From a virus, in IMG/VR virus record IMGVR_UViG_3300020169_000103, positions 1 to 25,237 of that record: a stretch of 25,237 bases of DNA; one strand, 5' to 3'. Below are positions 1 through 23,039 of the stretch, piece by piece (the stretch's first letter is position 1; each line of letters opens with the position of its first letter). The position numbers and the translations under genes were made by a program. A model generated the notes under the pieces. It saw only the letters and a list, made by a program, of their open reading frames with translations. It did not search any database and had not been told where the DNA came from.

Positions 1-571
1 GGGGAGGTGTAAACGGCCCGTTCTGACCTTGCATTGAGCGAGACGCCATCATGCTGTTCCACTTTCTGCTCTTTTTAAGCTGTGTGGATTTCATTGCGAT
101 GAGGGCGGTCTCGTATGACCCGTCATCGTTGAGTAGAAGGACAAAGTGTTGGTGGGTCTCTTCGATGTAAGACCCATCACCATTTGCAACATATTCCTTG
201 TTGTCATCTGGCGAACGCTCTGTCTTTGGACGTTCTTCTCCCGGTTCATAAATTGCCATGGGCGCACCGCTTCCGCTGCCACGCGGAGCCCACTGGATAA
301 ACCTACGCTGATAAGCGCAGGGTACTACTCGCACCCCATCCTTACCTTTGTACGGAATACCAGTAACGGTGTTGTATATATCACCCTTACGTGCCGTTTC
401 ATTTTCGTCCAACACAGGATCGTTACCCGACAAGACTTTAAGGAATGGAAGAGCTAAGTCTTCAGTCCCCATGTTGTCCATGCCTGCTCCGGCATCCTGT
501 TCCATCATGGCAGGATTAAATACTGCCACATCTTTTTTGCCTGCTTCGGCTACTTCGCTTTTCTTAGTCAT
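1..571 (-). CDS. Conserved phage protein, probable DNA-metabolism module (partial, C-terminus beyond left edge)
   Basis: The minus-strand frame opens with ATG at 571 and stays open for 190 codons to the window edge, so the C-terminus is missing. The start is supported by a purine-rich site (CGAGGTAAG) a few bases upstream and by a TAATG junction with the stop of the preceding gene. The protein begins MTKKSEVAEAGKKDVAVFNP. Later come EDLALPFLKVLSGNDP, then RRFIQWAPRGSGSGAP, then ETHQHFVLLLNDDGSYETAL and MKSTQLKKSRKWNSMM. I recognise the general pattern from marine phage genomes, where it is usually an unnamed conserved protein. Its position beside a helicase suggests a role in DNA replication or recombination, perhaps binding single-stranded DNA, but no diagnostic motif shows this. 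There is no signal peptide or membrane segment. I am sure of the gene and unsure of the function. Confidence 0.85.
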   Translation of the reverse strand, partial: MTKKSEVAEAGKKDVAVFNPAMMEQDAGAGMDNMGTEDLALPFLKVLSGNDPVLDENETARKGDIYNTVTGIPYKGKDGVRVVPCAYQRRFIQWAPRGSGSGAPMAIYEPGEERPKTERSPDDNKEYVANGDGSYIEETHQHFVLLLNDDGSYETALIAMKSTQLKKSRKWNSMMASRSMQGQNGPFTPP

Positions 572-1152
572 TATTTCTTACCTCGTTTAATTACTGCGCG
601 TTGACCTACCCATGCTCCGAACAACTCCATCGGAAAATCCTCTCCTGCTTCGCAACGTTCTTTGACAAACGCACGTAACGTTTGAGGATGCACCTCGGTT
701 TTTTGTTCTGGAATAAACCCTTGCTTTTGCGCAAAAGCAGCAAAGGCACCCGCTTGATCGTCCTCTCCACGGCCAAACTGACACAAGACAGTATTTTTAA
801 TAATGTCATCGTGCCCATGATCGCGTAGCCAGTCGTAGGCTTCAGGACGTTTATCAACGAGAATGGACGCACCATAGGTTTGCTTAACCTCGACGGTTGA
901 TCCGTCATCTAGTGCAAAGGAAGACATACCGATCTCTGCAAGCATCGACGGCATCTCCTCATCCGTTAATTTCAAAAGCTCCTTCTTCTGTTCTTTAAGC
1001 GTTTGCTCAAGATCAGAAATTCTTGCTTCTTTATCACGGATTGTTCTGGCCAACGCGGCAACCGAAGTTAGCCCTTGCTGGTCAATTTTCTCAACAGATG
1101 TAGCATTCGTTTGTTCAAAGTCCTGCTCCATCAATCTTTCTAGGTCACTCAT
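571..1152 (-). CDS. Conserved phage coiled-coil protein, 193 aa
   Basis: The start chosen is the ATG at 1152, which has a strong AAGGAG site (1160-1165) seven bases upstream. The frame runs open to 1233, but that part lies over the promoter region and has no ribosome binding site. The N-terminal 65 residues are charged and predicted helical, with a heptad-like stretch (about 31-63, including ISDLEQTLKEQKKELLKL). A compact domain follows with FALDDGSTVEVKQTYGAS (about 79-96), DWLRDHGHDDIIKNTV (107-122), QFGRGEDD (125-132) and HPQTLRAFVKE (155-165). This layout matches a widespread phage family of unknown function found near replication genes. The stop overlaps the next start by one base (TAATG at 571), so the two are probably translated together. 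A leftward promoter just upstream is a likely driver. No catalytic motif is visible. Confidence 0.85.
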   Translation of the reverse strand: MSDLERLMEQDFEQTNATSVEKIDQQGLTSVAALARTIRDKEARISDLEQTLKEQKKELLKLTDEEMPSMLAEIGMSSFALDDGSTVEVKQTYGASILVDKRPEAYDWLRDHGHDDIIKNTVLCQFGRGEDDQAGAFAAFAQKQGFIPEQKTEVHPQTLRAFVKERCEAGEDFPMELFGAWVGQRAVIKRGKK

Positions 1153-1192
1153 CGTGTTTCTCCTTTCGTGGTTAAAGGCACCTCTTTGGGCC

Positions 1193-7624: not shown

Positions 7625-10036
7625 CTATCTACTGCCTCTAATTAAGCTCTGCAAAGCTTCCACTTTGTCCGGATTAACGGCACCGCCAGTAGCTCCGGTC
7701 GGCACTGAAACCAACATGTTAAGTAAACGATCAATTTCAAAGTTGTTTGCCATAACGGAGGCCCGTATCGTGGAATCTTGTATTCCTTGCGATAGCTGTT
7801 CGAGGTTGTTGCGTTTTTGCGTTAGAGCTAAGTTTTTAAGTTCAACAAGTTTATTAGCTTCTGTTTCAGGGTTAGTAAACACAGCATCCGGTTCTGGGAA
7901 AAGCATTGCCACTTTTTCCATTTCTGCAACAGGGAATCTTGGGTTAACAACCAAAGCGGATCGGCCAAGAATCATTAATCCACGCAAGAATTGTCGGTTT
8001 TGCTGCGTATCTTGGAAGGCTTCACGAGCCGCGGGTATTGCACCCCCAAACGTTTTATCCAAGAACACGTCGAACGCTGCGTAAGGACCGGTGCCGTTTC
8101 TAGCGGCTTTCATTGCATCTCTAAGAATTGTAGAGTCTTCTTTCGAAATAGAGGTCGGGTTTTCATTAGTACCGCCTTTTACAACAATACCTAACTGGTT
8201 GTCCAAGACTTCTAATTGATTGCCCGCCATAAGCTGAATACGTTGACGTGCAGCAACGTCTGCGGCAATCGTATCACTCAGGCCTTGCGCATCTTCAGGC
8301 ATGGTCACAATTTCAGGTCCAGATGCTCCGGCCCTGACGTAAGTTCGTCCACCGTCATACGACAACCTCACACCCAGACCTTCGATTTTGTAGGCTTTAG
8401 CTACAGGGGTAGTATCAGAAGGCATTGTCCCAATTTTGTAGCGTTGTGTTCCAGCCTGCATATTACCTGCACTGGCCAGTGCTATTGCTTCTTGGCCCTC
8501 TTTCGTTGTTATGTCAATGTAAGTGACCAAGCCTGTAGCATTATCGCGTAAAACTCTGTAATCGGGCTCCATGTTTTCTGCCGCCGAATAAAGCTCTACA
8601 GGTTTTGATCCTGCTTCTGCGGTGGGGTCTACAAGCAACAACGTGCCATCAACAGTGATTAATTGGCGTTTGTCTTCGGCAAAAACCACTTTTGATTTTT
8701 GTGTTTCTGGATCAAACCTAACTAACTGACCGCCAATTGAGTAAATGTTTTCGTCTTTACCGCTTTTGTTCTCAGCGATTATTTTACCGTCCGAACCTAT
8801 AAGTTGTTGACCCCTACCTAAAATAAAGGTTTCGTCCTCTTCTCCTAAATTAGAAGCTAGGGGTTTTTCGGGATTAGCGGGGTCTACTAAAATAGCGCCT
8901 TTAGCCAAAATGACTGGTTTGGTGTTTTCTCTACCTAAAAGAAGAAGACGCTGATCGTCTGCGGTCATATCATTATAAACACTTAAAGGAACACCTTTAA
9001 TTGTAGCTTCAGGCCTACCTTGTTCTGCGGCGTACTGTTGTCCCGCCATCTGCAAAGCGCCAAGACGCAGTTGCCTATCGTCGGCTGCTTGGGATTGTTT
9101 AAATTTGTTTAGCTCACCGGCTCGTGCGCCTATGTTACCTAACACAGGTTGAAATGCGCTTGCTAATTGTTCCGCGGGCGTCGCTCCGGGGCGTCCGGCA
9201 CCTGCCGCAAACCCTAAAGCACCTTGTGCTACGTCAAATAACATCTGCGCTTTAGTCATTTCACGTTGTTCGTTTAATACAGCCTCTTTTTGCGCAGGAT
9301 CATCTATCTGATTAAACATAGAAAGTGATTGATCGAACAACGATTGAAAGCGGTTTTCGGGCGCGGCGACACCGCCCGGTTCCATATACTGAACAGGGCC
9401 GCCTTGGTTAAAATTTACAGGAGCAGGCCCTCCGGGGACCTGTACAGGAGCTTCTGGAGCGCCCATATTAACAGTAGACATAATACCTTCTGCCATGGCC
9501 CCTTCTACTGGGGCTGACATCTCTTCGGCAGCTAATCCTCCAATACCTTGATCTACCGCTGCAATCTGCATTACAGGTTGAAGCAGAGTCAAAACTGATT
9601 CGGGCGTTTGTTGTGAATCTTCAGGTCCAACCACTTGCGCTAATTCTTGATAACGCTGTTCAATAGGTGCTGTATCGCCTCGAATACCGTTAATGACGGT
9701 TTCGTAATCTTCAGCGTTTTCCAAGTCCTGCATTTGGCCTGCATACTGAGTAAGCATTCCTTCTAATTCAGCCGGATCAATTCCTTGCTGCATAGCACCT
9801 TGGGCCGCTTCGTTAATATCAACGGAATTTGGGTCGATTGCGGGTAAACCGGGAGGCATCATCTGTGGTCCGGGAGCCGCGGGCATTGGCATAGGTGCCA
9901 TACCGCCGTCCTGCATGGGAATTACCCCACGACCCATCAAAATATCCTTTTGCGTAACGTTCCCATCACCACTTAGGTCTGGGAAAGCTGCGCCCCCTTT
10001 GGCAAACATCTGTCTGCCCATTACTTCTCTATTCAT
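7625..10036 (-). CDS. Structural protein with EF-hand/dockerin-like loop, 803 aa
   Basis: Residues 20-31 read DLSGDGNVTQKD, with D1, S3, D5, G6, N7, V8, T9 and D12 placed as in a calcium-binding EF-hand or dockerin loop. A DIL helix start follows. Around it are GG motifs (FAKGGAAFPD, MQDGGMAPMP) and, at 210-223, NQGGPVQYMEPGGV. Residues about 50-225 are Pro/Met/Gln-rich and acidic. The region from about 345 to 560 has repeated short beta-type units such as GAILVDPANPEKPLA and GTLLLVDPTAEAG. The C-terminal 250 residues look helical, with a mixed fold of unknown type. Both gene junctions are tight (TAATG at 10036, TAGATG at 7624), inside the block of giant virion genes. No enzyme signature is seen. 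A calcium-stabilised assembly role is inferred. Confidence 0.8.
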   Translation of the reverse strand: MNREVMGRQMFAKGGAAFPDLSGDGNVTQKDILMGRGVIPMQDGGMAPMPMPAAPGPQMMPPGLPAIDPNSVDINEAAQGAMQQGIDPAELEGMLTQYAGQMQDLENAEDYETVINGIRGDTAPIEQRYQELAQVVGPEDSQQTPESVLTLLQPVMQIAAVDQGIGGLAAEEMSAPVEGAMAEGIMSTVNMGAPEAPVQVPGGPAPVNFNQGGPVQYMEPGGVAAPENRFQSLFDQSLSMFNQIDDPAQKEAVLNEQREMTKAQMLFDVAQGALGFAAGAGRPGATPAEQLASAFQPVLGNIGARAGELNKFKQSQAADDRQLRLGALQMAGQQYAAEQGRPEATIKGVPLSVYNDMTADDQRLLLLGRENTKPVILAKGAILVDPANPEKPLASNLGEEDETFILGRGQQLIGSDGKIIAENKSGKDENIYSIGGQLVRFDPETQKSKVVFAEDKRQLITVDGTLLLVDPTAEAGSKPVELYSAAENMEPDYRVLRDNATGLVTYIDITTKEGQEAIALASAGNMQAGTQRYKIGTMPSDTTPVAKAYKIEGLGVRLSYDGGRTYVRAGASGPEIVTMPEDAQGLSDTIAADVAARQRIQLMAGNQLEVLDNQLGIVVKGGTNENPTSISKEDSTILRDAMKAARNGTGPYAAFDVFLDKTFGGAIPAAREAFQDTQQNRQFLRGLMILGRSALVVNPRFPVAEMEKVAMLFPEPDAVFTNPETEANKLVELKNLALTQKRNNLEQLSQGIQDSTIRASVMANNFEIDRLLNMLVSVPTGATGGAVNPDKVEALQSLIRGSR

Positions 10037-13000
10037 TAAAATAACCCCGCTGATTTAGCACCTGCCGCTGCCGACAAGCCCGCTACACCCAAGCCCAATA
10101 TTGATTGAGCCGGTGATACACTTCCGCCAGATTGCTGTGATATGGCCATCTGACTAGACGGCGCACCTTTATATATGTCAGATAAGAAACCTACACGCTG
10201 GTAAGGCTCGTACATTTGCTCGACTTCTGTCTTACGAGTAGCTTCCAGAACCGCCTGATCTTGTGCTTGCTGTTGCTTACCAACATCGAAGATAAAGCCT
10301 GCTTCTTTCTGACCCAGATTTTGTTGTAGTTCGCCAAGAGCGCCTTGACGTAAGCCAAGTTGGCTAAGTCCTTCACCTTGCTGAAGCGCAAGCTGACCGT
10401 AACTTGTTCCAAGACCCGCGATACCTTCGCCCATTCGGCCTTGTAGCTCGGAGCCTTGTAAACCAAGCGCCCCACCTGCTTGTGAACCCTGCATAGCCAT
10501 TTGTGCTTGGCTTTGACCCAACTGACCAGATTGACTGGCCAACTGACCCGCCAATTGTTCGGCAGATATACCAAGTTGTGCGGCTCTGTTTGCAATGTCC
10601 GCCTGCTGGTTTACACCCTGCATGGCTAACGCGCCTGTTTGTTGGCCTAATTGACCAGCTAACTGCGCTGCACTCATGCCTGTTTGTGCCGCAAGCGATT
10701 GTAGGTTCATACCTGTTGTAGCCAGTGCGTTTGCATTGGCTGACGCCATTTGCTCTGCACTTAAACCTAACTGACCGGCCTGATTCAGAGCCGCTAGACC
10801 CATCTGACCGCCTTGCTGTGCGCTTGCCTGTGCTAATTGTGCTGCATTTAGGCCCATTTGAGCGCCTTGCTGCGCTCCAGATTGACCGAGTTGTGCTGCC
10901 TGCATTCCAAGTTGAGCGCCCTGTTGCGCGGCGGATAGTCCAGATTGCGTAATAAGCTGTTCAGCCGACATTCCTGTCTGAGCCTGTTGATTAATTAACT
11001 GACCCGCAAGCTGTTCGGCTGAAATACCCATCTGCGCAGCTTGTCCAGCCAATTGGCCTTCTAACTGTGATGCGCTAATACCAAGCTGACCCGCTAATTG
11101 TTGTGCAGATATACCTGTTTGAGCTTGTTGTTGAGCCGTGGTCGCTGCTAATTGTTCAGCGGATAAGCCTAACTGACCTGCTTGCTGTGAGGTCGATGCG
11201 AGTAATTGTTGTGCTGAAAGTCCTGTTTGAGCCTGTTGATTAATCAACTGACCGGCTAATTGCTCTGTAGAAATACCCATTTGAGCGGCTTGTCCAGCTA
11301 ACTGACCCTGCAATTGAGCAGAAGACATACCAAGCTGACCGGCTAATTGCTCGGCAGATTGACCTAACTGGCCTGATTGAGCCAAGTTTGAGGCGGCAAG
11401 CTGTTCCGCGGACAATGCTTGTTGTCCTACGTTTAAAGCACCTTGTTGTGCCATTTGCTCGGCAGACATACCCAACTGACCCGCTTGAGCCAAGTTTGAA
11501 GACGCTAACTGACTTGCACCTTGCGCCAATTGACCTTGCTGACCAAACGCTGACAGTCCTAATTGACCGCTTTGAGTTAAACCCTGCTGCGCCAACTGTT
11601 CTGCGGACATACCTGTTGTAGCTGCCAATTGCTCGGCAGATAGTCCCAATTGACCTTGCTGTTGTGCTGTTCGTGCCGCAAGTTCTTCCGCAGACAAACC
11701 TAGTGTACCAGCGGCTTGAGCCGCGGCCATACCTGCCTGAGAACCTTGCGCCCCCAGTGCGCCAGTAAGTTGTGCGGCTTGTTGAGCCCTAGCTTGTTGT
11801 GATTCAAAGGCTTGTTGCGCTCTTTGTGAAGCACTTTCAAAGCCTTGTTGACGCATACCGGCAGCGGTACGACCCTGCTGTTCCAGTATGTTTCTTTGTA
11901 ATTCTTGTTCAGCTACCGCCTGACGTGATCCGCCAAAGGCACCAGCGCCAACTGCTTGTGCGCCAACTTGCTGCTGCTGAATATTACCCGCACGTTGAAT
12001 ATCCGCTAAAGCTTGCTGAACGGCGGCATCTTCATATTGATTCATAAACGAACCAGCCGAAGCAGGATCGTATGCACCCGTAGTACCGGCTAAACCAGCA
12101 ATACCTGATTGAGCAGTTTGTGTTCCTAATGCTCCGGCTTGTTGTAAAGCTTGTGCAGCATCGGATGTGATGCCCCTAGCGCCGGAGATTGCGGTTTGAG
12201 TCTGCTGTGCCGCCTGTTGTGCTGCTGTTTGTCCACCTGATCTAGCTTGTCCTGCAACATTTCTAGCCGCTGTCGCAACATCATCAATTCCTCCAATAGC
12301 TCTTTCATAAGCGCCTATTCCGCCAGCACCAGCAGCTTGTGCGTCTGTTCTAGCTTGTCCACTTACACCACTTAAACCCTGACTAGCTTGTTGGGCCGCG
12401 AGCCGTGCTGCATCGGTAGCACCCGCTACACCTGCACCTGTTTGTTGAGCCGCGAGCCGTGCTGCATCGGATACACCACCTAAACCTGCCGCCGTTCCAG
12501 CCGCACCTAGTCTTGCACCTAGTCCTGCTTGAGCAGCAGCATCTGCACCGGCTAACCCGGCTGCGCCAAGAGCTTGTTGTCCACCAGCCGATTGGGCTCG
12601 TGCGGCCTGAATGGCTGCGTTTGTTGCAGTGCCTGCTTCTTGTGCCGCTTGTAAACCGCCAATACCTGCTTGTGTAAGACCTGCACCAGCGCCAGTAACG
12701 GCCTGACGTGCATTTGCAATAGCGGCAGCAGAATCTGTACCTGATTGTAGAGCCGATGCTTGCGCTCCCGCGCCCGCGGCACGAGCTTGTTCTTGCGCAG
12801 TCCCAGCGGCAGACCCTAAATCGGTTTGTCCAGTAAGAGCTTGTTGTCTTGCATTAGCCGCTACCGTTCCTAAATCCTGACCGCTTTGTTGGGCAAGTGC
12901 CCTAGCATTTAAAGCTTCTTGAGCGGCGGTATTAAGCCCGGTTTGACCCGCAGTGGCAGTTTGTTGTCCGGCTAAAGTGGCAGCATTAAGCCCGGTTTGA

Positions 13001-13719
13001 CCCGCAGTAGCGGTCTGTTGCGCGGCTAAAGCCGCTGCATCTAAACCTGTTTGTGCCGCACCAGCTTGCAGTACACCAGCTTGTCCAGCGGTAGAAGCCA
13101 AGTTTCGGGAAGCTAGGTCAGCGGCGGCGAGTTGAGTACCTAATGTATCTCTTGTACCTGTTTCAGCGGCACGATTAGCCGCTTGAAGGGCCAACGCATT
13201 GGCCGCGGTATTAGCAGATTCAGCACCTGAAATTACGCCGGGAATGTTAGCTGCGGCAGTACCAAGAGCAGTTTGACCTCCGCCCGCTGCTGTTCTACCG
13301 CCCAGTGCGGCGGCATCCAAAGCATTTTGTGCGGCGGTCGTTGCCGTGCCGCCCGCAGTAATAGCACCAGCAATCCCTGTTTGTGCCGCTTCAATCTGTC
13401 CGGGTATGTTAGCCGCGCCTGCGGTCATAAGTGCTGACGCTTCGTCTTGGAAAGGCTTGGCATTTGTCATAACACTGCCCATGGCGGATTGTGCGTCGCC
13501 AAGGGTAAAACCAGCTTCTTCTAAATAAGGTTGATACCCGCCAATACCGGCTTCTGCTAATTCAGTTGCCTTGATTTGTAGGCCGGACATTTCCGCGACC
13601 ATATAGGGCGGAATAGTTTGTCCTTGGTCAGCGAGAGCTTTTGCAGATTGTAAGAGGCCTAGTTTATAAGCCTCAATTTCCGGTGCTTCGCGGACTATCT
13701 GTGTGGATTGTTCAGCCAT
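10036..13719 (-). CDS. Giant Ala/Gln/Gly-rich helical repeat protein, 1227 aa
   Basis: Most of the protein is low-complexity Ala, Gln, Gly, Leu and Ser. The C-terminal half is built from units beginning G[LIM]SAEQL, spaced 11 or 18 residues apart, for example LSAEQLAATTAQQQAQTGI then SAQQLAGQLGISASQL. Since 18 is 11 plus 7, this fits mixed hendecad and heptad coiled coils. The N-terminal half has 18-residue units (TGLNAATLAGQQTATAGQ). Between them, about residues 555-650, is a less repetitive segment with FMNQYEDAAVQQALADIQRA and GAGAFGGSRQAVAEQEL. The last 40 residues are hydrophobic and Gly/Ala-rich (ILGLGVAGLSAAAGAKSAG). A long fibrous helical assembly inside the virion or across the envelope, such as an ejection conduit or a ruler, is inferred. 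The start and stop both form TAATG junctions. Confidence 0.8.
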   Translation of the reverse strand: MAEQSTQIVREAPEIEAYKLGLLQSAKALADQGQTIPPYMVAEMSGLQIKATELAEAGIGGYQPYLEEAGFTLGDAQSAMGSVMTNAKPFQDEASALMTAGAANIPGQIEAAQTGIAGAITAGGTATTAAQNALDAAALGGRTAAGGGQTALGTAAANIPGVISGAESANTAANALALQAANRAAETGTRDTLGTQLAAADLASRNLASTAGQAGVLQAGAAQTGLDAAALAAQQTATAGQTGLNAATLAGQQTATAGQTGLNTAAQEALNARALAQQSGQDLGTVAANARQQALTGQTDLGSAAGTAQEQARAAGAGAQASALQSGTDSAAAIANARQAVTGAGAGLTQAGIGGLQAAQEAGTATNAAIQAARAQSAGGQQALGAAGLAGADAAAQAGLGARLGAAGTAAGLGGVSDAARLAAQQTGAGVAGATDAARLAAQQASQGLSGVSGQARTDAQAAGAGGIGAYERAIGGIDDVATAARNVAGQARSGGQTAAQQAAQQTQTAISGARGITSDAAQALQQAGALGTQTAQSGIAGLAGTTGAYDPASAGSFMNQYEDAAVQQALADIQRAGNIQQQQVGAQAVGAGAFGGSRQAVAEQELQRNILEQQGRTAAGMRQQGFESASQRAQQAFESQQARAQQAAQLTGALGAQGSQAGMAAAQAAGTLGLSAEELAARTAQQQGQLGLSAEQLAATTGMSAEQLAQQGLTQSGQLGLSAFGQQGQLAQGASQLASSNLAQAGQLGMSAEQMAQQGALNVGQQALSAEQLAASNLAQSGQLGQSAEQLAGQLGMSSAQLQGQLAGQAAQMGISTEQLAGQLINQQAQTGLSAQQLLASTSQQAGQLGLSAEQLAATTAQQQAQTGISAQQLAGQLGISASQLEGQLAGQAAQMGISAEQLAGQLINQQAQTGMSAEQLITQSGLSAAQQGAQLGMQAAQLGQSGAQQGAQMGLNAAQLAQASAQQGGQMGLAALNQAGQLGLSAEQMASANANALATTGMNLQSLAAQTGMSAAQLAGQLGQQTGALAMQGVNQQADIANRAAQLGISAEQLAGQLASQSGQLGQSQAQMAMQGSQAGGALGLQGSELQGRMGEGIAGLGTSYGQLALQQGEGLSQLGLRQGALGELQQNLGQKEAGFIFDVGKQQQAQDQAVLEATRKTEVEQMYEPYQRVGFLSDIYKGAPSSQMAISQQSGGSVSPAQSILGLGVAGLSAAAGAKSAGLF

Positions 13720-15602
13720 TACGCCGTAGCCCTCCCACGGCTCTCAAGATTACGCATTACTGAATACATATTCTGGATTCCGTTGTTAAGATTTCCGTTT
13801 CCTAAACCACGTACTGCATCGGTAGTCATTACAAACTCACCGGGCATCAACATGGCTCGAACGCTATCTTCACCCGGAGTACCCTCAGTAGGAGCTATGC
13901 CGCCTGTGCGACGCGGGAAGATGAGTCCACCATCTGCGGCAGATTGGTATCCTTGTGTCACGTAAGGTCGTGCAAAAGGTCCGCCGGGGGTACTAGCTGT
14001 TAAGTAATTTTGTGGGTTTAGTGGAGGTAATGCCGCTACCTGTTCAGGCGGGTTGTAACCTACTAAATCCTCTTCTTCAAAAGCCGTTGCGTTAGCAACA
14101 GGTTCATATTGACCTGTTTCTTGGTTTAACTGCAACTGACCTAAGTTGTGTACAAGGTACTTACCGGGATCAGCGTCGATCAGGTCTCTACCTGTAGTAG
14201 GTGTACCGTCAGGGTTGTAGTCTAAGAAGTTAGCTTGCTCTATTTCAGGTACTTCAAAGAAGCCCGCACCCGTCGCCGCAGCCGTTCCAAGCGCCGCCAT
14301 GGGGCCGTATCGTCTAAGTAAATTAGGTGTTAACTCAGAAGCAACCAGCTTTGCACCTTCTAACTGAGCGGCGGTTGCATTTACTGGGTTTATTTTTTGA
14401 GCATCTAAAACATCAGTTACGCTAGTGCTTTCGGGGAAGAAGGCGTTTTTCATGCCTTCTCCAAAACCAATTTCGTCTCCCGGTGTCAAAGCGCCTTTAA
14501 CGCTTTCGTAGAATCCGGGTGGTTTGGTCAACTCGGTTGCCGCGTCCGTACCTGTATCTACTACGGTATCCAGTAATTTAGTTCCTGTTTGTGCCGTGCC
14601 GCCTGCGCTTACAGACGGAATATTGAGGCTTTCGCCTGCAATAATCATGTTTGGATCAGTAATTTGTGGATTAGCCGCCATCAAAGCGTCAACAGAAGTG
14701 TTGTTTGCTTGAGCAATTTGACTCAAAGTATCGCCTTGCTGAATGGGTTGAGATGCAAGTGAAGTCGCAGATTCCGTTACTTTAGCTACTTCTGCACCCG
14801 GTGTTGGTACATAATCAGAGAAGAAAGACTCTTTAAAGCCTCCCAAGCTTCCGCTTGTAGCACCTTCAGTAAATCCAGATACCGTTTGACCCACACGTGA
14901 AGTAAATCCAGAAGCCGCTTCGCTAATGTTTCCAGTAAAGGAACCCGTGTTTCCAGTGAAACCAGCAGTGACACCACCGACAGCACCAGATATAAGTGCA
15001 GACTTGAGAGCGTCTTTTATACTACCACCGTTTATAAGTGTTCCAATACCTGAACCAAGCGCCGCACCGTATATAGGTCCGAGAGGCGTGAACGCCAATG
15101 CAATAGGTAAGATAATAGGAGCGACTTTTTTGACGATTTTAACAACCGCCTTAACCACTTTTTTAATAGCCTTACCAATTCCTTTGAATAGTTTCTTCAA
15201 AAAGAACTCAGGTAGGCCTGTCGTAGGGTTAAGATCGTTAGCTTCTGCGCCAACAACATAAGCTTCAGGGTCTTCAACCCCGGCTTCTGTAAGAATATCG
15301 TAGATACGTTGCTTCATTACCTCGTCTTCGAGGAATTGTGCGGGGATGACTAATTCACCCTCTGCAACGTGGGCCAGCATGTTGTCTTCGTTTCGACCAT
15401 ACTTCGCCATGCGCTCTGCAAGCGCCGGAAATTGTGCTATACCGTTGTCACCAAACTCTTCTTTAGCATCGACTTCGGAATCATCTCCGTAAACTTTTTC
15501 GAGTTCGTCATCTTCCATGACAAAATCGCCAATACCACCGGTCGGGACTTCCAGTTCTTCTAATTCTTCGGTTTCTTCAACCATTAATGCTTCTTTTGCC
15601 AT
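13719..15602 (-). CDS. LysM-containing virion protein with cationic amphipathic helix and hydrophobic segment, 627 aa
   Basis: The order is an acidic N-terminus (1-50), a segment with LAHVAEGELVIPAQFLEDE (77-94), then a strongly cationic amphipathic helix (FFLKKLFKGIGKAIKKVVKA, 133-152, continuing to 160). A hydrophobic glycine-rich stretch follows (161-190), then a Gly/Ser/Thr region. A LysM domain lies at about 286-329, with QQGDTLSQIAQANNTSVDAL and, near its end, AGESLNIP. A linker rich in Ala/Pro ends with DGGLIFPRRTGGI (557-569) and a conserved-looking tail (APTEGTPGEDSVRAMLMPGE, then FVMTTDAVRGLGNGN). LysM binds peptidoglycan. No lytic enzyme domain is present, so it is not an endolysin. 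Cell-wall binding plus a membrane-active helix fits a protein released at infection to cross the envelope. This role is inferred. Confidence 0.85.
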   Translation of the reverse strand: MAKEALMVEETEELEELEVPTGGIGDFVMEDDELEKVYGDDSEVDAKEEFGDNGIAQFPALAERMAKYGRNEDNMLAHVAEGELVIPAQFLEDEVMKQRIYDILTEAGVEDPEAYVVGAEANDLNPTTGLPEFFLKKLFKGIGKAIKKVVKAVVKIVKKVAPIILPIALAFTPLGPIYGAALGSGIGTLINGGSIKDALKSALISGAVGGVTAGFTGNTGSFTGNISEAASGFTSRVGQTVSGFTEGATSGSLGGFKESFFSDYVPTPGAEVAKVTESATSLASQPIQQGDTLSQIAQANNTSVDALMAANPQITDPNMIIAGESLNIPSVSAGGTAQTGTKLLDTVVDTGTDAATELTKPPGFYESVKGALTPGDEIGFGEGMKNAFFPESTSVTDVLDAQKINPVNATAAQLEGAKLVASELTPNLLRRYGPMAALGTAAATGAGFFEVPEIEQANFLDYNPDGTPTTGRDLIDADPGKYLVHNLGQLQLNQETGQYEPVANATAFEEEDLVGYNPPEQVAALPPLNPQNYLTASTPGGPFARPYVTQGYQSAADGGLIFPRRTGGIAPTEGTPGEDSVRAMLMPGEFVMTTDAVRGLGNGNLNNGIQNMYSVMRNLESRGRATA

Positions 15603-18331: not shown

Positions 18332-18700
18332 TTATTCAGTTGGTACTGCTTCAGTTACCCAAGGCACACCAGATTCAGTGGTTGCAGCCGCATCAATTTG
18401 CTTTTGCACCTTTGCATCCCGATCCGCTTCTACGCGAGCTTTAGCTTCGGCAGCGGTTTCGTCGCCTTCGATCAAGCTGTCGTATACCCAACCAAGAACA
18501 TCGTTCTCAGTTAAATCAGCGTATGGAATAAAATCTGGAGACGAAGGGTCTCCTTCACAGCGAAGTTTTCCGCCTTCTGAAGCAGTGTACGATGGATCGC
18601 CATCGCTCTGCGCTACCATTGACCAGTAAACGAGGAATACAACCCCGTCCGAGTCAGTTCTTTGCATGTCCGATATGGACCATGTATTTGTAATTGCCAT
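18332..18700 (-). CDS. Conserved phage protein downstream of the tail fibre, 122 aa
   Basis: The ATG at 18700 follows an AAGGAG site (18709-18714). The N-terminal half is beta-type (MAITNTWSISDMQRTDSDGV, VFLVYWSMVAQ). It is followed by FIPYADLTENDVLGWVYDSL, a helical Ala/Glu/Lys stretch (about 80-107), and a TTESGVPW tail. The order, beta domain then YADLTE then helix then GxPW, recalls an unnamed family common in marine phages near fibre genes. Together with the 78-aa gene it forms the only pair in the late block with independent, strong ribosome binding sites and real intergenic gaps. High and separate translation is therefore plausible. Its role is unknown. Confidence 0.8.
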   Translation of the reverse strand: MAITNTWSISDMQRTDSDGVVFLVYWSMVAQSDGDPSYTASEGGKLRCEGDPSSPDFIPYADLTENDVLGWVYDSLIEGDETAAEAKARVEADRDAKVQKQIDAAATTESGVPWVTEAVPTE

Positions 18701-18732
18701 GTTTCTTTCTCCTTTAATGACAGTTGGTTAAG

Positions 18733-21700
18733 TTATTGAGCAATTATATCAATTGCGCTAATCCCATCTATACGACCCCTAAATTCCACCGTTAAAGACA
18801 TATTAAGTATGTAGCTTGAGTTGAGGTTAACCAGAGGAATGTATATGGTTGTACCGTTTGGTTTAGTAGGCGTTCCCATACTAAATTGACCAGAGGTTGA
18901 TCCTAAATCGGCAACAGTAATATTGCCCGCCCCAAACAACGTAGTATTGGAACCATTTGCGCCAATACTGTATATCTTCGTAAAACAACCTATTGCGTTT
19001 ACATTGCTATAATCACCTGTAGCAGTAATGGTCAAACCACCGAAAACACTGCCGTCTTGCTGTATTCTTAAATACTTGGCGGCGGAGGCGGCAAAAATCT
19101 GATTTAGACCAACAGCGTAAAGACCAGCGGCACCCGATCCAACTACTTGCGCCCCGTTAACCCTTAATATCTCATTGGTTACTTTTGCCCCACCAGAAAT
19201 AGTTACTAAGTCTGCACTACCATCAACGGTCAGCATACTTGCGTTGTTGTCAGATTCAACGCGGAAGTCAGCGCTTGCAGCGCCGTCGTTAAATACTGTG
19301 CCTGCTACGTTTGAGTAAAACGCTGAGTGTGTGCCAATGCTAAACGCAATGCTTCTGTCTGCAATTGCTTCAGTGCTGTCGGCTTTGAAGGCTAGGTTGT
19401 ACTTTGCATGTATGGCTGCATTATCGCCATGATTACCTAGTTGGATCGTGGCGGCAGTAGCGGTTCCTCCGTTTACTGTAAGGGGAGTTGTGGTTCCTGT
19501 TGTTCCAATGCCTACCCCGTTATTACCACCATCAACATGGAGCATATTAGTGTTGCTATCAGACTCAACGCGGAAATCTTGGTTATGACTATTATTATTA
19601 AATATAACTTCGTCTCTATCAAATTCTGCTAGTTCTTGCCAACTGATTACATCTCCGGCTGTGCCGCCAGCCGCACTGTAAAAGTGAATTGAGCCGCCCT
19701 GTGAGTTGTGATAAATCTGAGCAGCCTGACGACTAGAGTGCTTGAATTTGTCGCCAGCGGTTGTTGTATAGAATGTAACACCTGTTTTAAGACCGCCCGC
19801 CCAGTAGGTGTTACCCGCCCAAATAGCCCCGTCGTAGCTCATGTCTATCGCAGCGCCTTGCTGATGCTCAAAAACAGAACTGGTGCCTACGCCTATGCCG
19901 TTTCTGGAACCGTCCACCCACAACATATTGGCGTTGCCGTCAGACTCAACGCGGAAGTCTCTGTCTAAACTTGTTTCATTAAATACATATTCGGTTGGTC
20001 CGAAAAACATAGTGGCTACACCACTTTCAACAAGAAATAATTTTGAAGTATCGTGTTGATAACCTATACCGCCTTGATAAGCTTGAGCACCTGCAGTGCC
20101 ATCTGCAAAATATAAAGCACCGTTTGTATCACTTGCAGTAGCAATGGTAATACCAGCTTCACCACTTGCTTTAGCTACAACTAATTGCTCTGCTCCTGAG
20201 TAATATGAACCTGGTGTTGAAGTACCTATTCCTACCGCATCATTACCAGCATCAACAAACAGCATATTGGCGTTGCTGTCAGACTCAACGCGGAAGTCGG
20301 TGTCTGCACTGCCCTCGTTAAAAACAGTTTCACCAAGACTAAACTGAGCGCGAATTCCGCCACCAGAACGTAAGGTAAGCCTGTCTGCGGAATGTTCGTA
20401 TTGAATCTGCCCTTGGTACGCATCTGCACCCGAACCGTCACCAAACAAAACATATCCGTTGCCATCTGTTGTTGTTTGGATTTGTATTCCGTTTTGAGAA
20501 TCAGACGTAGTGCCAATATTTAACAGCGTTCCTGCGTAGGCAACAGTCGATGTTCCAATAAGTACATTGCTAGTACCACCATTAACAAACAGCGCATGAG
20601 TGTTGCCGTCAGACTCAACGCGGAAGTCTTTATCCCCCCCATCGTCATTGAAAGCAACTTCTGAGCCTACCACTCTCATTCTGTTTGCCCCGCCAGTGTC
20701 TAGCTCAAACTGATCCCCACCTTGGAAGCCAAAGTAAGTGTGAGTATCACCAGCGTGATAGATAAAGTCAGGTATATGTATACCTGAATTAAAGTAAGCC
20801 GCACCCGCATCTGACATATCAAGTGTAAGCGCGGTAATTGTAGTGCCGCCATCGTTGCCTAATAAATTTATGTCTTTATCTTGTACTGGTGCATAAATCT
20901 GAAGGCTTGAAGCAGAGTTAGAAATACGACCAAACTCAGTACCTGCATCCTTAACGCTTAGATCCCCACCATCAGCATCAAGGATAATGTCTCCTGCAAC
21001 GTCTAGTGTTAGGTTGCCAGAGCTTACGTCAATCTCATTACCATCTATTGTAATGTTGTCTACATTTACTTGAGTAAATGTACCGACTGCTGGAGTTGTG
21101 CCGCCAATAGTAGAGTTATCAATAGTACCGGCGTTTATATCAGCAGTTGTTAATACAGACGAAGCGATAGTCATTACGCCCGTGCTGTTAGCGATTGTTG
21201 CAGAAGCCGTACCGTCATTTGCAGAAATACTGCCTGTTTCAACGTCAGTAGCGTTAACTACGTCATCTTTGAGCAAAACACTGTCAATCGTGACACCGCT
21301 GCCCGCAGAGGTTTCGTTAATCGTGTTGGTTTTTAGCGCCTGACCCGCAGTAACCTCCGGGTTGGTTGATCCAGACGTGGCTCCATTAGCTAGAACCTCG
21401 GCCCACGTATCGACCGTGCCGACCTGTGAATCAACGTAAGCTTTAATAGATTGCTGCGTAGCAAGCTTTGTGGCGCTATTAGACGCCATGTTGTCTTCGT
21501 CTTTGATACCTGTAACAGTTGCGCCGTCACCTGCAATATTTAAACTGGTGTTAGCAACAACCGTCGTACCGGTTACTGCTGCCGCCGTAGAACCACCAAT
21601 AACAGAGTTATCAATAGTACCGCCGTTAATATCGGCAGTACCCGCGGTAAGTGTAGGCGTGGTAATTTCAGTAGCACGTAACTTGGTGTAAACGTCCGTG

Positions 21701-22134
21701 ACAGTAGCCGCACTTGCGCCGCCACCATCAAACTTGACCACCATGTCAACGCCCGCAGGTATTTCAAGGTCCCTGCCAGAGTTGTAAGTGCCTTGGAAAA
21801 GTAAAATAGACCGACTACTTGCCAGACTATTTCTTACAAAAACTATTTTTTCAGCGTCATTTGGGTCAAGCTGAACAAAAACATCGCCCCCTAGATCGCC
21901 TGAACTGTAAAATTCAATCCACTTATTGCGCCCGTCTGAGGTCGCACCGTTGCTGATTTGAAGTGTGTTTGGTGATCCGGATGAGCCCGCGCTAGTAAGC
22001 GTAACCCGCTCTGCGCCATTAATTGCTTGATCCAGAATATCGAAATTGACGTTTGTAGTATCACCCCATGTACCCGACTGCTCACCAGTGGCCGGTTTTT
22101 CAATACCGAGGTTAACTGTATAGGTACTTGGCAT
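18733..22134 (-). CDS. Tail fibre protein, 1133 aa
   Basis: The N-terminus (STYTVNLGIEKPATGEQSGT, then WGDTTNVNFDILDQAINGAE) is typical of the virion-attachment domain of marine phage fibres. A globular region to about residue 160 follows, then long Ser/Thr/Asn/Gly repeats (GGTIDNSVIGGST, AGTIDNSTIGGTTP). Five modules follow, each starting near DFRVESD at residues 503, 613, 726, 853 and 956. Most continue into MLxVDG and GIGTS segments. The C-terminal 150 residues lack repeats (FTKIYSIGANGSNTTLFG) and may form the receptor tip. I see no S74-type chaperone domain at the end. A GAGG site lies about 10 bases before ATG 22134. The role is receptor binding. The repeats are probably trimeric beta-structure. 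Confidence 0.85.
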   Translation of the reverse strand: MPSTYTVNLGIEKPATGEQSGTWGDTTNVNFDILDQAINGAERVTLTSAGSSGSPNTLQISNGATSDGRNKWIEFYSSGDLGGDVFVQLDPNDAEKIVFVRNSLASSRSILLFQGTYNSGRDLEIPAGVDMVVKFDGGGASAATVTDVYTKLRATEITTPTLTAGTADINGGTIDNSVIGGSTAAAVTGTTVVANTSLNIAGDGATVTGIKDEDNMASNSATKLATQQSIKAYVDSQVGTVDTWAEVLANGATSGSTNPEVTAGQALKTNTINETSAGSGVTIDSVLLKDDVVNATDVETGSISANDGTASATIANSTGVMTIASSVLTTADINAGTIDNSTIGGTTPAVGTFTQVNVDNITIDGNEIDVSSGNLTLDVAGDIILDADGGDLSVKDAGTEFGRISNSASSLQIYAPVQDKDINLLGNDGGTTITALTLDMSDAGAAYFNSGIHIPDFIYHAGDTHTYFGFQGGDQFELDTGGANRMRVVGSEVAFNDDGGDKDFRVESDGNTHALFVNGGTSNVLIGTSTVAYAGTLLNIGTTSDSQNGIQIQTTTDGNGYVLFGDGSGADAYQGQIQYEHSADRLTLRSGGGIRAQFSLGETVFNEGSADTDFRVESDSNANMLFVDAGNDAVGIGTSTPGSYYSGAEQLVVAKASGEAGITIATASDTNGALYFADGTAGAQAYQGGIGYQHDTSKLFLVESGVATMFFGPTEYVFNETSLDRDFRVESDGNANMLWVDGSRNGIGVGTSSVFEHQQGAAIDMSYDGAIWAGNTYWAGGLKTGVTFYTTTAGDKFKHSSRQAAQIYHNSQGGSIHFYSAAGGTAGDVISWQELAEFDRDEVIFNNNSHNQDFRVESDSNTNMLHVDGGNNGVGIGTTGTTTPLTVNGGTATAATIQLGNHGDNAAIHAKYNLAFKADSTEAIADRSIAFSIGTHSAFYSNVAGTVFNDGAASADFRVESDNNASMLTVDGSADLVTISGGAKVTNEILRVNGAQVVGSGAAGLYAVGLNQIFAASAAKYLRIQQDGSVFGGLTITATGDYSNVNAIGCFTKIYSIGANGSNTTLFGAGNITVADLGSTSGQFSMGTPTKPNGTTIYIPLVNLNSSYILNMSLTVEFRGRIDGISAIDIIAQ
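19251..20628 (-). repeat. Five dispersed direct repeats in the tail fibre gene
   Basis: A 19-nt core, cagactcaacgcggaagtc on the plus strand, begins at 19251, 19560, 19941, 20280 and 20610. Three copies are exact; the 19251 and 19560 copies each differ at one position. The spacings are 309, 381, 339 and 330 bp, all multiples of three. Each encodes DFRVESD. The surrounding sequence is similar but more diverged. Confidence 0.85.
21104..21639 (-). repeat. 44-nt imperfect direct repeat in the fibre N-terminal part
   Basis: Positions 21104-21147 and 21596-21639 match at about 39 of 44 bases, 492 bp (164 codons) apart. Both encode the start of a TADIN-GGTIDNSVIGG-like unit. The near identity at base level suggests a recent duplication within the fibre. 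Confidence 0.7.
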
Positions 22135-22145
22135 CTATTTTATCC

Positions 22146-23039
22146 TCACGCTGCTATTTGCGTCCAATTTGCGCTCTGGGTTGGTTCTTCCTCCGACCAT
22201 GACGGCGACTGATTAACATCTATCTCACTATAACCCGGATTTTGATCCGGGACAATGTTAGAGTATACCAGTACATTTCCGACAACACCTGTTGCGCTGA
22301 CTCCTATTACATTTATTACAGCATCACTTTCTACGGTGACACTACCGACTTGACCTGTTCCACTCACACCACCAACGTTAATTGTCTGTCCGGTCCTAAC
22401 TGTTACCGAACCTGTGGTGCCTGTCGCAGACAAGCCTGTTACCGGTACATTAGCTTCGCCGTCTATAGTGGCGTCGCCTACCTGACCAGTAGCTTCAAGA
22501 CCTATTGGGAAAACATTGGCTTTTGCAACAATCGTTACTGAACCAACGGACCCTGTGGCCTCAAGTCCTGTGACGGGTACAATTGCGCCAGCTACGACGC
22601 TTACGGAGCCTACTGCTCCAGTTCCCGACACACCCGTAACGTTTACGTTTGCATCTGCGGTGACCGATACGGAGCCTACTGCTCCAGTTCCGGCCAATCC
22701 GGTGACGGGGACATTCGCATCAGCAGTTATGCTGACCGAACCGACCTGCCCTGTTCCCGCTACACCTGTAACGTTAACATTGGCACCTGCCGTTGTAGTG
22801 ACACTGCCTACTTGGCCAGTACCAGCTACCCCTGTTACAGATACGTTGGCTGCCGCGTTTATTGTTACGCTGCCAACACTACCTGTTGCTTGTAGTCCTG
22901 TTACCGGTACATTGGCTTCCGCCACAACCGTTACAGAACCTACAGAACCCGCAGCTTGTGGTAGCCCACTCTGGGACCACGGGCCTGCGCCCCAACCTGA
23001 ACGGCCCCAGCCGCCTATTGGGACGATTACGTCAGCCAT
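22146..23039 (-). CDS. Tandem 22-residue repeat protein, 297 aa
   Basis: A Trp/Gly-rich N-terminus (GGWGRSGWGAGPWSQSG, 9-25) is followed by ten consecutive 22-residue repeats (33-252) and a partial eleventh. The consensus is VGSVTVxAxANVxVTGVxATG. Each unit should form two beta strands, so a beta-solenoid or beta-sheet stack is likely. The C-terminus (about 263-297) has three short aromatic units, PGYSEID, PSWSEEE and ANWTQI. I recall similar VTGVSATG repeats in marine phage genomes, without a known function. The gene overlaps its upstream neighbour by one base (TAATG at 23039). The fibre gene starts 11 bases beyond its stop. It is probably a virion surface or fibre-associated protein. Confidence 0.8.
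   Translation of the reverse strand: MADVIVPIGGWGRSGWGAGPWSQSGLPQAAGSVGSVTVVAEANVPVTGLQATGSVGSVTINAAANVSVTGVAGTGQVGSVTTTAGANVNVTGVAGTGQVGSVSITADANVPVTGLAGTGAVGSVSVTADANVNVTGVSGTGAVGSVSVVAGAIVPVTGLEATGSVGSVTIVAKANVFPIGLEATGQVGDATIDGEANVPVTGLSATGTTGSVTVRTGQTINVGGVSGTGQVGSVTVESDAVINVIGVSATGVVGNVLVYSNIVPDQNPGYSEIDVNQSPSWSEEEPTQSANWTQIAA
22284..22943 (-). repeat. Ten tandem 66-bp repeats
   Basis: The ten units are in frame and contiguous, each 66 bp with no length variants. Base-level similarity between units is moderate, with the TGG/CAC-like repeats most alike in the middle copies (for example 22590-22700). Because 66 is a multiple of three, the opposite strand also stays open, which creates a long false reading frame there. 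Confidence 0.8.

What the first reader, a model, noticed from the sequence alone, without database searches (positions are those of the whole stretch)
19251..20628. Base-level conserved repeats in the fibre as likely recombination points
The DFRVESD core is kept almost identically in bases, including third positions, across five modules, while the flanks differ. All spacings are multiples of three. In-frame recombination between copies could add, remove or exchange fibre modules and change host range or fibre length.
Basis: partly seen in the sequence, partly recalled or inferred. Interest (0 to 1): 0.5.

Follow-up and report, generated by a model that had tools for sequence, protein, structure and literature searches.

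The report
Phage fibre modules swapped at repeats
This ocean virus's host-grabbing fibre is built from interchangeable segments joined by short, nearly identical DNA stretches, and comparison with related viruses shows that segments are swapped between viruses at those joints.

Summary
The tail-fibre gene (18733-22134, minus strand) has five DFRVESD cores; codons agree in 58 of 70 pairwise comparisons, simulated mean 30.1, reached in 0 of 20,000 runs. In relatives the cores are module joints. Of core pairs from different genes, 141 match at 80% or more on one side only and 11 on both. Similarity ends fall in core blocks in 133 of 173 cases, 66.6 expected. Sixty pairs of internal modules are shared between fibres, 44 at different positions, 56 with neither neighbour shared. 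The window's module 4 recurs in L307 between unrelated sequence; cultured CRP-212 and CRP-235 share one module between two cores. Core number is not fixed. Base identity is pool-specific, not a universal site. Against it: the nearest relative differs by replacement of the whole distal fibre, not at cores, and breaks inside modules are common. Exchange between phages is shown; duplication inside a gene is not. Enzyme and host-range effect are untested. New variant of known tail-fibre mosaicism.

The parts
18733..22134 (-). Modular tail-fibre gene, 1133 aa
   Evidence: no Pfam or PHROG family at E 0.001 and no PDB sequence at E 0.1
21130..22134 (-). Conserved N-terminal fibre domain (about 335 aa); 94% nt identical to L008 over 21400-22134
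21073..21147 (-). TADINAGTIDNSTIGGTTPAVGTFT motif: second kind of junction; identity to 8 relatives declines across it and is at background just after it. An 80% copy lies at 21579-21639
20608..20628 (-). Core 1 (DFRVESD), block 20545-20652
20323..20544 (-). Module 1 variable part (74 aa); 57% aa over 56 residues in L331
20278..20298 (-). Core 2, block 20215-20322
19984..20214 (-). Module 2 variable part (77 aa); listed relatives 36-47% aa
19939..19959 (-). Core 3, block 19876-19983
19603..19875 (-). Module 3 variable part (91 aa); 51-52% aa in L297 and L300
19558..19578 (-). Core 4, block 19495-19602; left junction of the module shared with L307
19294..19494 (-). Module 4 variable part (67 aa); 83% nt, 86% aa identical to module 1 of 2 in L307
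19249..19269 (-). Core 5, block 19186-19293; similarity to L307 ends about 28 nt into it
18736..19185 (-). C-terminal part after the last core (150 aa); no tblastn hit at E 0.001 in 433 fetched loci

Best explanation
The cores are in-frame homology joints of a modular phage tail fibre. Shown: fibres of related marine phages share single modules whose similarity begins and ends in the core blocks, while neighbouring modules, and often the rest of the DNA held, are unrelated. Inferred: during coinfection (or infection of a cell holding related phage DNA) homologous recombination or single-strand annealing uses the ~50-110 nt block as short homology. Two crossovers at successive cores, or at a core and the N-terminal motif or gene end, then swap, insert or delete a module without losing the frame. 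Inferred: codons about -2 to +18 of the core are re-mixed by these crossovers and so stay alike at base level across a recombining pool of phages, while module interiors stay deeply diverged, perhaps under selection for different surface binding.
For: Codon identity beyond chance in the window. The excess reaches from about codon -2 to +18 and is absent at other conserved residues on either side, in the set fetched by homology and among GC3-matched genes. One-sided matches 141 against 11 two-sided, in 102 families; the change-point lies between -15 and +60 nt of the core in 82 of 102. Break fraction 265/295 at cores against 151/241 inside modules. HSP ends per kb 7.2 in blocks, 1.4 in modules. 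Distinct ends in blocks 133/173, shifted null mean 66.6, maximum 86 of 1,000. Six chosen junctions read base by base switch in the core block. 60 shared internal module pairs (75% or more, over at least 60% of the shorter), 44 at different ordinal positions, 56 with neither neighbour shared; 47 of 60 of identical length. In 44 of 60 the flanks show no hit (29) or are below 75% identical (15). Window module 4 in L307. Cultured CRP-212 and CRP-235 share one module bounded by variant cores. L319 and L399 carry two modules in swapped order. Core number varies with the same neighbouring genes.
Against: Against L008 (neighbouring genes 95.7-97.6% identical) no module is shared and the junctions are at another motif and near the gene end. 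Breaks inside modules are also common (0.63). In the broad pattern set (122 genes) core codons are hardly more alike between genes than codon usage predicts at several positions, and less at F1 and E4. 1,408 core pairs fell between the thresholds and were set aside. HSP ends inside a block may be placed at its edge because the block itself is similar. Part of the loci were chosen by core spelling. No recombinase was identified among the window proteins scanned. Many ORFs come from truncated contigs.
Confidence: 0.85

Rival explanations
1. The base identity is only protein conservation plus codon bias and recent common ancestry of the repeats, with no role in recombination.
For: The six residues DFRVES are 96-100% conserved in 629 blocks (partly by construction, since blocks were found with a profile of such cores). 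In the broad pattern set core codon identity is near or below expectation at several positions, and core GC3 tracks gene GC3 (r = 0.84 over 142 genes).
Against: 0 of 20,000 codon-usage simulations reach the window's identity. Between GC3-matched genes the core is 0.687 identical (expected 0.419), while codons 19-30 and -10..-3 show almost no excess; recent ancestry would show in the whole block. Similarity breaks concentrate at the blocks.
Confidence: 0.08
2. The core is a dedicated DNA-level recombination site, kept by nucleotide selection and recognised by a nuclease, invertase or site-specific recombinase, in the manner of an integron or another cassette system.
For: Base-level conservation with a clear boundary; single modules behave as cassettes.
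Against: The spelling changes with phage composition and in serine codon class: 473 TCN and 137 AGY cores, 23 of 133 genes mixed. No inverted repeat of 18 nt or more in 18500-22000. Change-points spread over about 75 nt rather than one position. No such enzyme among the window proteins scanned.
Confidence: 0.05
3. Modules are exchanged by non-homologous recombination anywhere, and only joints at module borders survive because the fibre must fold; the core is a marker of the border, not the driver.
For: Cores coincide with a conserved protein block; breaks also occur within modules.
Against: Junctions keep exact register and 47 of 60 shared modules have identical length. Base-level likeness beyond the protein is not predicted by selection on folding alone.
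Confidence: 0.12
4. Assembly artefact: short-read assemblers joined unrelated fragments at the repeated cores.
For: Most loci are metagenome contigs, several ending in the fibre; 8 of 60 shared modules are 96.4-100% identical.
Against: 52 of 60 shared modules are 75-96% identical (median 85.7%), which chimeric joining of the same reads would not produce. Complete genomes of cultured CRP-212 and CRP-235 show the same pattern.
Confidence: 0.03

Closest known systems
Phage mosaics formed by relaxed homologous recombination, with traces of homology at the borders (De Paepe et al. 2014, PMC3945230; 12 of 51 passages seen)
   Same: Exchanged segments flanked by short, diverged homology; donors otherwise distant.
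   Different: There, mosaics among temperate E. coli phages and defective prophages, with homology traces in about 30%; here up to 8 core blocks per fibre ORF, each a potential joint. Recombinase dependence was not tested here.
Domain mosaicism of phage receptor-binding proteins (PMC10684548, 2023; 12 of 51 passages seen)
   Same: Ongoing shuffling of tail-fibre fragments between phages.
   Different: That work is at protein-profile level and notes that fibres rarely hit more than one ECOD domain; here the joint is located at base level in a fibre without Pfam or PHROG match.
T4-type gp37 swaps at conserved motifs (His boxes, glycine-rich motifs; recalled, no source read)
   Same: Conserved motifs in a fibre gene serving as crossover points.
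   Different: The motif here is one DFRVESD block repeated along the protein; no sequence relation was tested.
Genus-wide tail-fibre exchange in Pectobacterium tailocins (PMC13195805; abstract and outline seen)
   Same: Homologous exchange of fibre loci across lineages.
   Different: Whole tail-fibre loci, alongside DNA inversion; here internal modules.

Membership tests
Tail-fibre mosaicism by homologous recombination at conserved flanking sequence | Exchanged segment bounded by conserved homology on both sides | tested here: met
Tail-fibre mosaicism by homologous recombination at conserved flanking sequence | Segment more similar than the rest of the genomes | tested here: met
   Of 60 pairs: 29 no flank hit, 15 flanks below 75%, 10 at 75-90%, 2 at 90% or more, 4 too short. 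Some no-hit flanks may be non-overlapping contig regions.
Tail-fibre mosaicism by homologous recombination at conserved flanking sequence | Dependence on a recombinase | not testable with these tools
   No recombinase family among window proteins scanned; the window is a 25-kb record
Invertase-driven fibre cassettes (Stf/Min type, recalled) | Inverted crossover sites and switched orientation | tested here: inconclusive
   No inverted repeat of 18 nt or more in 18500-22000; module comparisons used the plus strand only, so inverted copies would have been missed
Site-specific cassette system (integron-like) | A fixed DNA site across phages | tested here: not met
   Core spelling follows gene GC3 (r = 0.84) and varies in serine codon class
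Diversity-generating retroelement | Reverse transcriptase and template/variable repeat pair | not tested
   No dedicated search; the variation seen is whole-module replacement

The most novel reading that the evidence does not exclude
Marine phages share a common pool of interchangeable fibre modules with one standard joint, and selection for exchangeability itself keeps the joint alike at base level within each pool, making the fibre an evolvable cassette array.
Probability: 0.2. Interest if true: 0.75.

Novelty: new variant of a known kind. Interest (0 to 1): 0.55.

Why it matters
It gives a concrete, base-resolved account of how uncultured marine phages reassemble their fibres, in a protein that the Pfam and PHROG searches here did not recognise. 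It makes the rate and rules of module exchange measurable from long reads and in cultured Roseobacter phages, two of which (CRP-212, CRP-235) are listed with the same host.

Tried and rejected
Universal DNA site: rejected, because core spelling follows gene composition and differs in serine codon class. The 18-mer core occurs twice in the genome collection; my own estimate for chance with equal base frequencies is about 7. Intragenic duplication: no support, 0 of 454 within-gene module pairs, with only 0.41 expected at the between-gene rate. The first HSP-end statistic was confounded by short HSPs covering only the conserved block; replaced. Structure prediction of a 70-aa fragment was of low confidence (mean pLDDT 68, pTM 0.33), so no fold search was made. 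A profile search of PDB sequences gave two insignificant hits, E 0.29 and 0.54. One query found 3 loci only. Literature: eight searches; the five motif strings occur in 0 papers of the held library. Passages of PMC2993671 and PMC7029224 mention tail-fibre mosaicism or a hypervariable host-recognition region, without a joint motif in the passages shown.

Full report
What is there. The window is an IMG/VR virus record of 25,237 bases. The gene at 18733-22134 on the minus strand encodes 1133 aa. Its translation matches, at 27-34% identity over parts of its length, proteins of Roseobacter phages CRP-345, CRP-902, CRP-901 and CRP-212 annotated as tail fibre and a hypothetical protein of CRP-235, and shorter stretches in 11 other records. 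It has no Pfam or PHROG match at E 0.001 and no PDB sequence match at E 0.1. Five DFRVESD cores lie 110, 113, 127 and 103 codons apart.

Is it more than chance. Three cores are identical over 21 nt and the others differ by 1 and 2 bases; no further copy exists in the window with up to 3 mismatches. Given the fibre's own codon usage, 58 of 70 pairwise codon identities compare with a simulated mean of 30.1 and maximum of 56 in 20,000 runs.

How far the base conservation reaches. Over 144 genes from loci not chosen by exact core spelling (though fixed serine as TCN), 43 of them with two or more cores, codon identity at core codons 0-6 is 0.732 within genes (expected 0.428) and 0.687 between genes of similar GC3 (expected 0.419). 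It remains raised to codon 18; at codons 19-30 and -10 to -3 it is close to expectation. In the broad pattern set of 122 genes the between-gene excess is weak or absent at several core positions, and over 142 genes core GC3 follows gene GC3 with r = 0.84. The spelling is therefore shared within pools of phages of like composition, not universal. Serine 5 is TCN in 473 and AGY in 137 cores, and 23 of 133 genes with two or more such cores mix both; this set includes loci selected by spelling, so the proportions are not a census.

Junctions. From all loci then held I kept 260 non-redundant ORFs with 629 blocks, 1-8 per ORF, many truncated. Among core pairs in different genes, 73 matched at 80% or more upstream only, 68 downstream only, 11 on both sides, 184,607 on neither, and 1,408 fell between the thresholds and were set aside. 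The 141 one-sided pairs form 102 families; in 82 the estimated change-point lies between -15 and +60 nt of the core. That scan looks only around cores, so controls were run. The fraction of similarity that breaks is 265/295 at cores, 151/241 inside modules, 288/437 after the last core and 1839/5427 before the first (55 further cases had no room). HSP ends per kb (85% or more, 150 nt or more) are 7.2 in blocks, 1.4 in modules, 1.75 after the last core and 0.85 before the first. Distinct ends in genes with at least three blocks lie in blocks in 133 of 173 cases, with a shifted null mean of 66.6 and maximum of 86 in 1,000; blocks (-45 to +105) make up 42% of that length. Six junctions that I chose and read base by base switch within the core block.

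Modules as units. Among 366 internal modules, 60 pairs between genes match at 75% or more over at least 60% of the shorter one; 44 are at different ordinal positions, 16 at the same, and in 56 neither neighbour is shared. In 47 the lengths are identical. Flanking DNA outside the gene gives no hit in 29, less than 75% identity in 15, 75-90% in 10, at least 90% in 2, and is too short in 4; some no-hit cases may be non-overlapping contigs. L319 and L399 carry two modules in swapped order. No matching pair occurs within a gene in 454 comparisons, with 0.41 expected at the between-gene rate, so only frequent duplication is excluded.

The window itself. Module 4 matches module 1 of 2 in L307 at 86% aa over 65 residues. 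Flank identity is at background before core 4, 22-28 of 30 across the module, and falls after about +28 nt of core 5. Modules 1 and 3 have relatives at 57% and 51-52% aa, module 2 weaker ones, and the C-terminal part none in 433 loci. Against L008, whose neighbouring genes are 95.7-97.6% identical, no module is shared; only core blocks match. There, and in seven other informative relatives of 12 examined (L088 and L350 give the same profile), identity declines from about nt 939 of the gene, through a TADINAGTIDNSTIGGTTPAVGTFT motif at about 21073-21147, to background from nt 1059 on. L008 resumes at window 18725, near the gene end. So that large replacement used another motif and the gene end, not the cores.

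Core number. With related neighbouring genes the number of blocks is 5 in the window, 5 in L008, 4 in L012, 4 in L019, 6 in L020, 5 in L088, 6 in L006, 3 in L090, 2 in L050 and 1 in L058 and L077; in others, for example L026, L061 and L069, none was detected at the thresholds used. Neighbour identity ranges from about 70% to 98% among these.

Cultured phages. CRP-212 gp31 and CRP-235 gp33, from phages listed with the same host FZCC0040, share one module at 91% aa whose similarity starts at the first core and ends at the second; these cores are divergent variants of DFRVESD. CRP-901 and CRP-902, also listed with one host, share a module at 83% aa at different positions, and the next module at 52%, with 4 and 5 blocks detected, several at weak scores. 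These are complete genomes, which argues against assembly artefacts.

Mechanism and limits. Homologous exchange at the core blocks between phages is the best account. The enzyme is unknown, the effect on host range is untested, and the fold is unresolved. Cores are preferred but not exclusive joints.

Noticed in passing
window 22146-23039 (-): Protein of 297 aa that by eye is made of about eight or more repeats of a VGSVTVxAxANVxVTGVxGTG-like unit, next to the fibre; Tandem Repeats Finder does not report it.
   Followed up: no
window 10036-13719 (-): 1227-aa protein that by eye is largely A/G/Q-rich repeats (LGLSAEQLA type), with a 54-nt tandem repeat at 12931-13060.
   Followed up: no
window 13719-15602 (-): 627-aa protein with a LysM domain (Pfam) and weak PHROG matches to endolysin and tape-measure families.
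   Followed up: no
window 21087-21147 and 21579-21639 (-): A second repeated motif (TADIN-GTIDN-IGG) at 80% nt identity, one copy at the N-terminal junction.
   Followed up: partly
window 2-1158 (-): Two adjacent proteins matching Pam3 gp34-like and gp33-like families.
   Followed up: no
L439, L440: CRP-212 and CRP-235 each carry core blocks in two genes, so modules may also move between genes of one phage.
   Followed up: no
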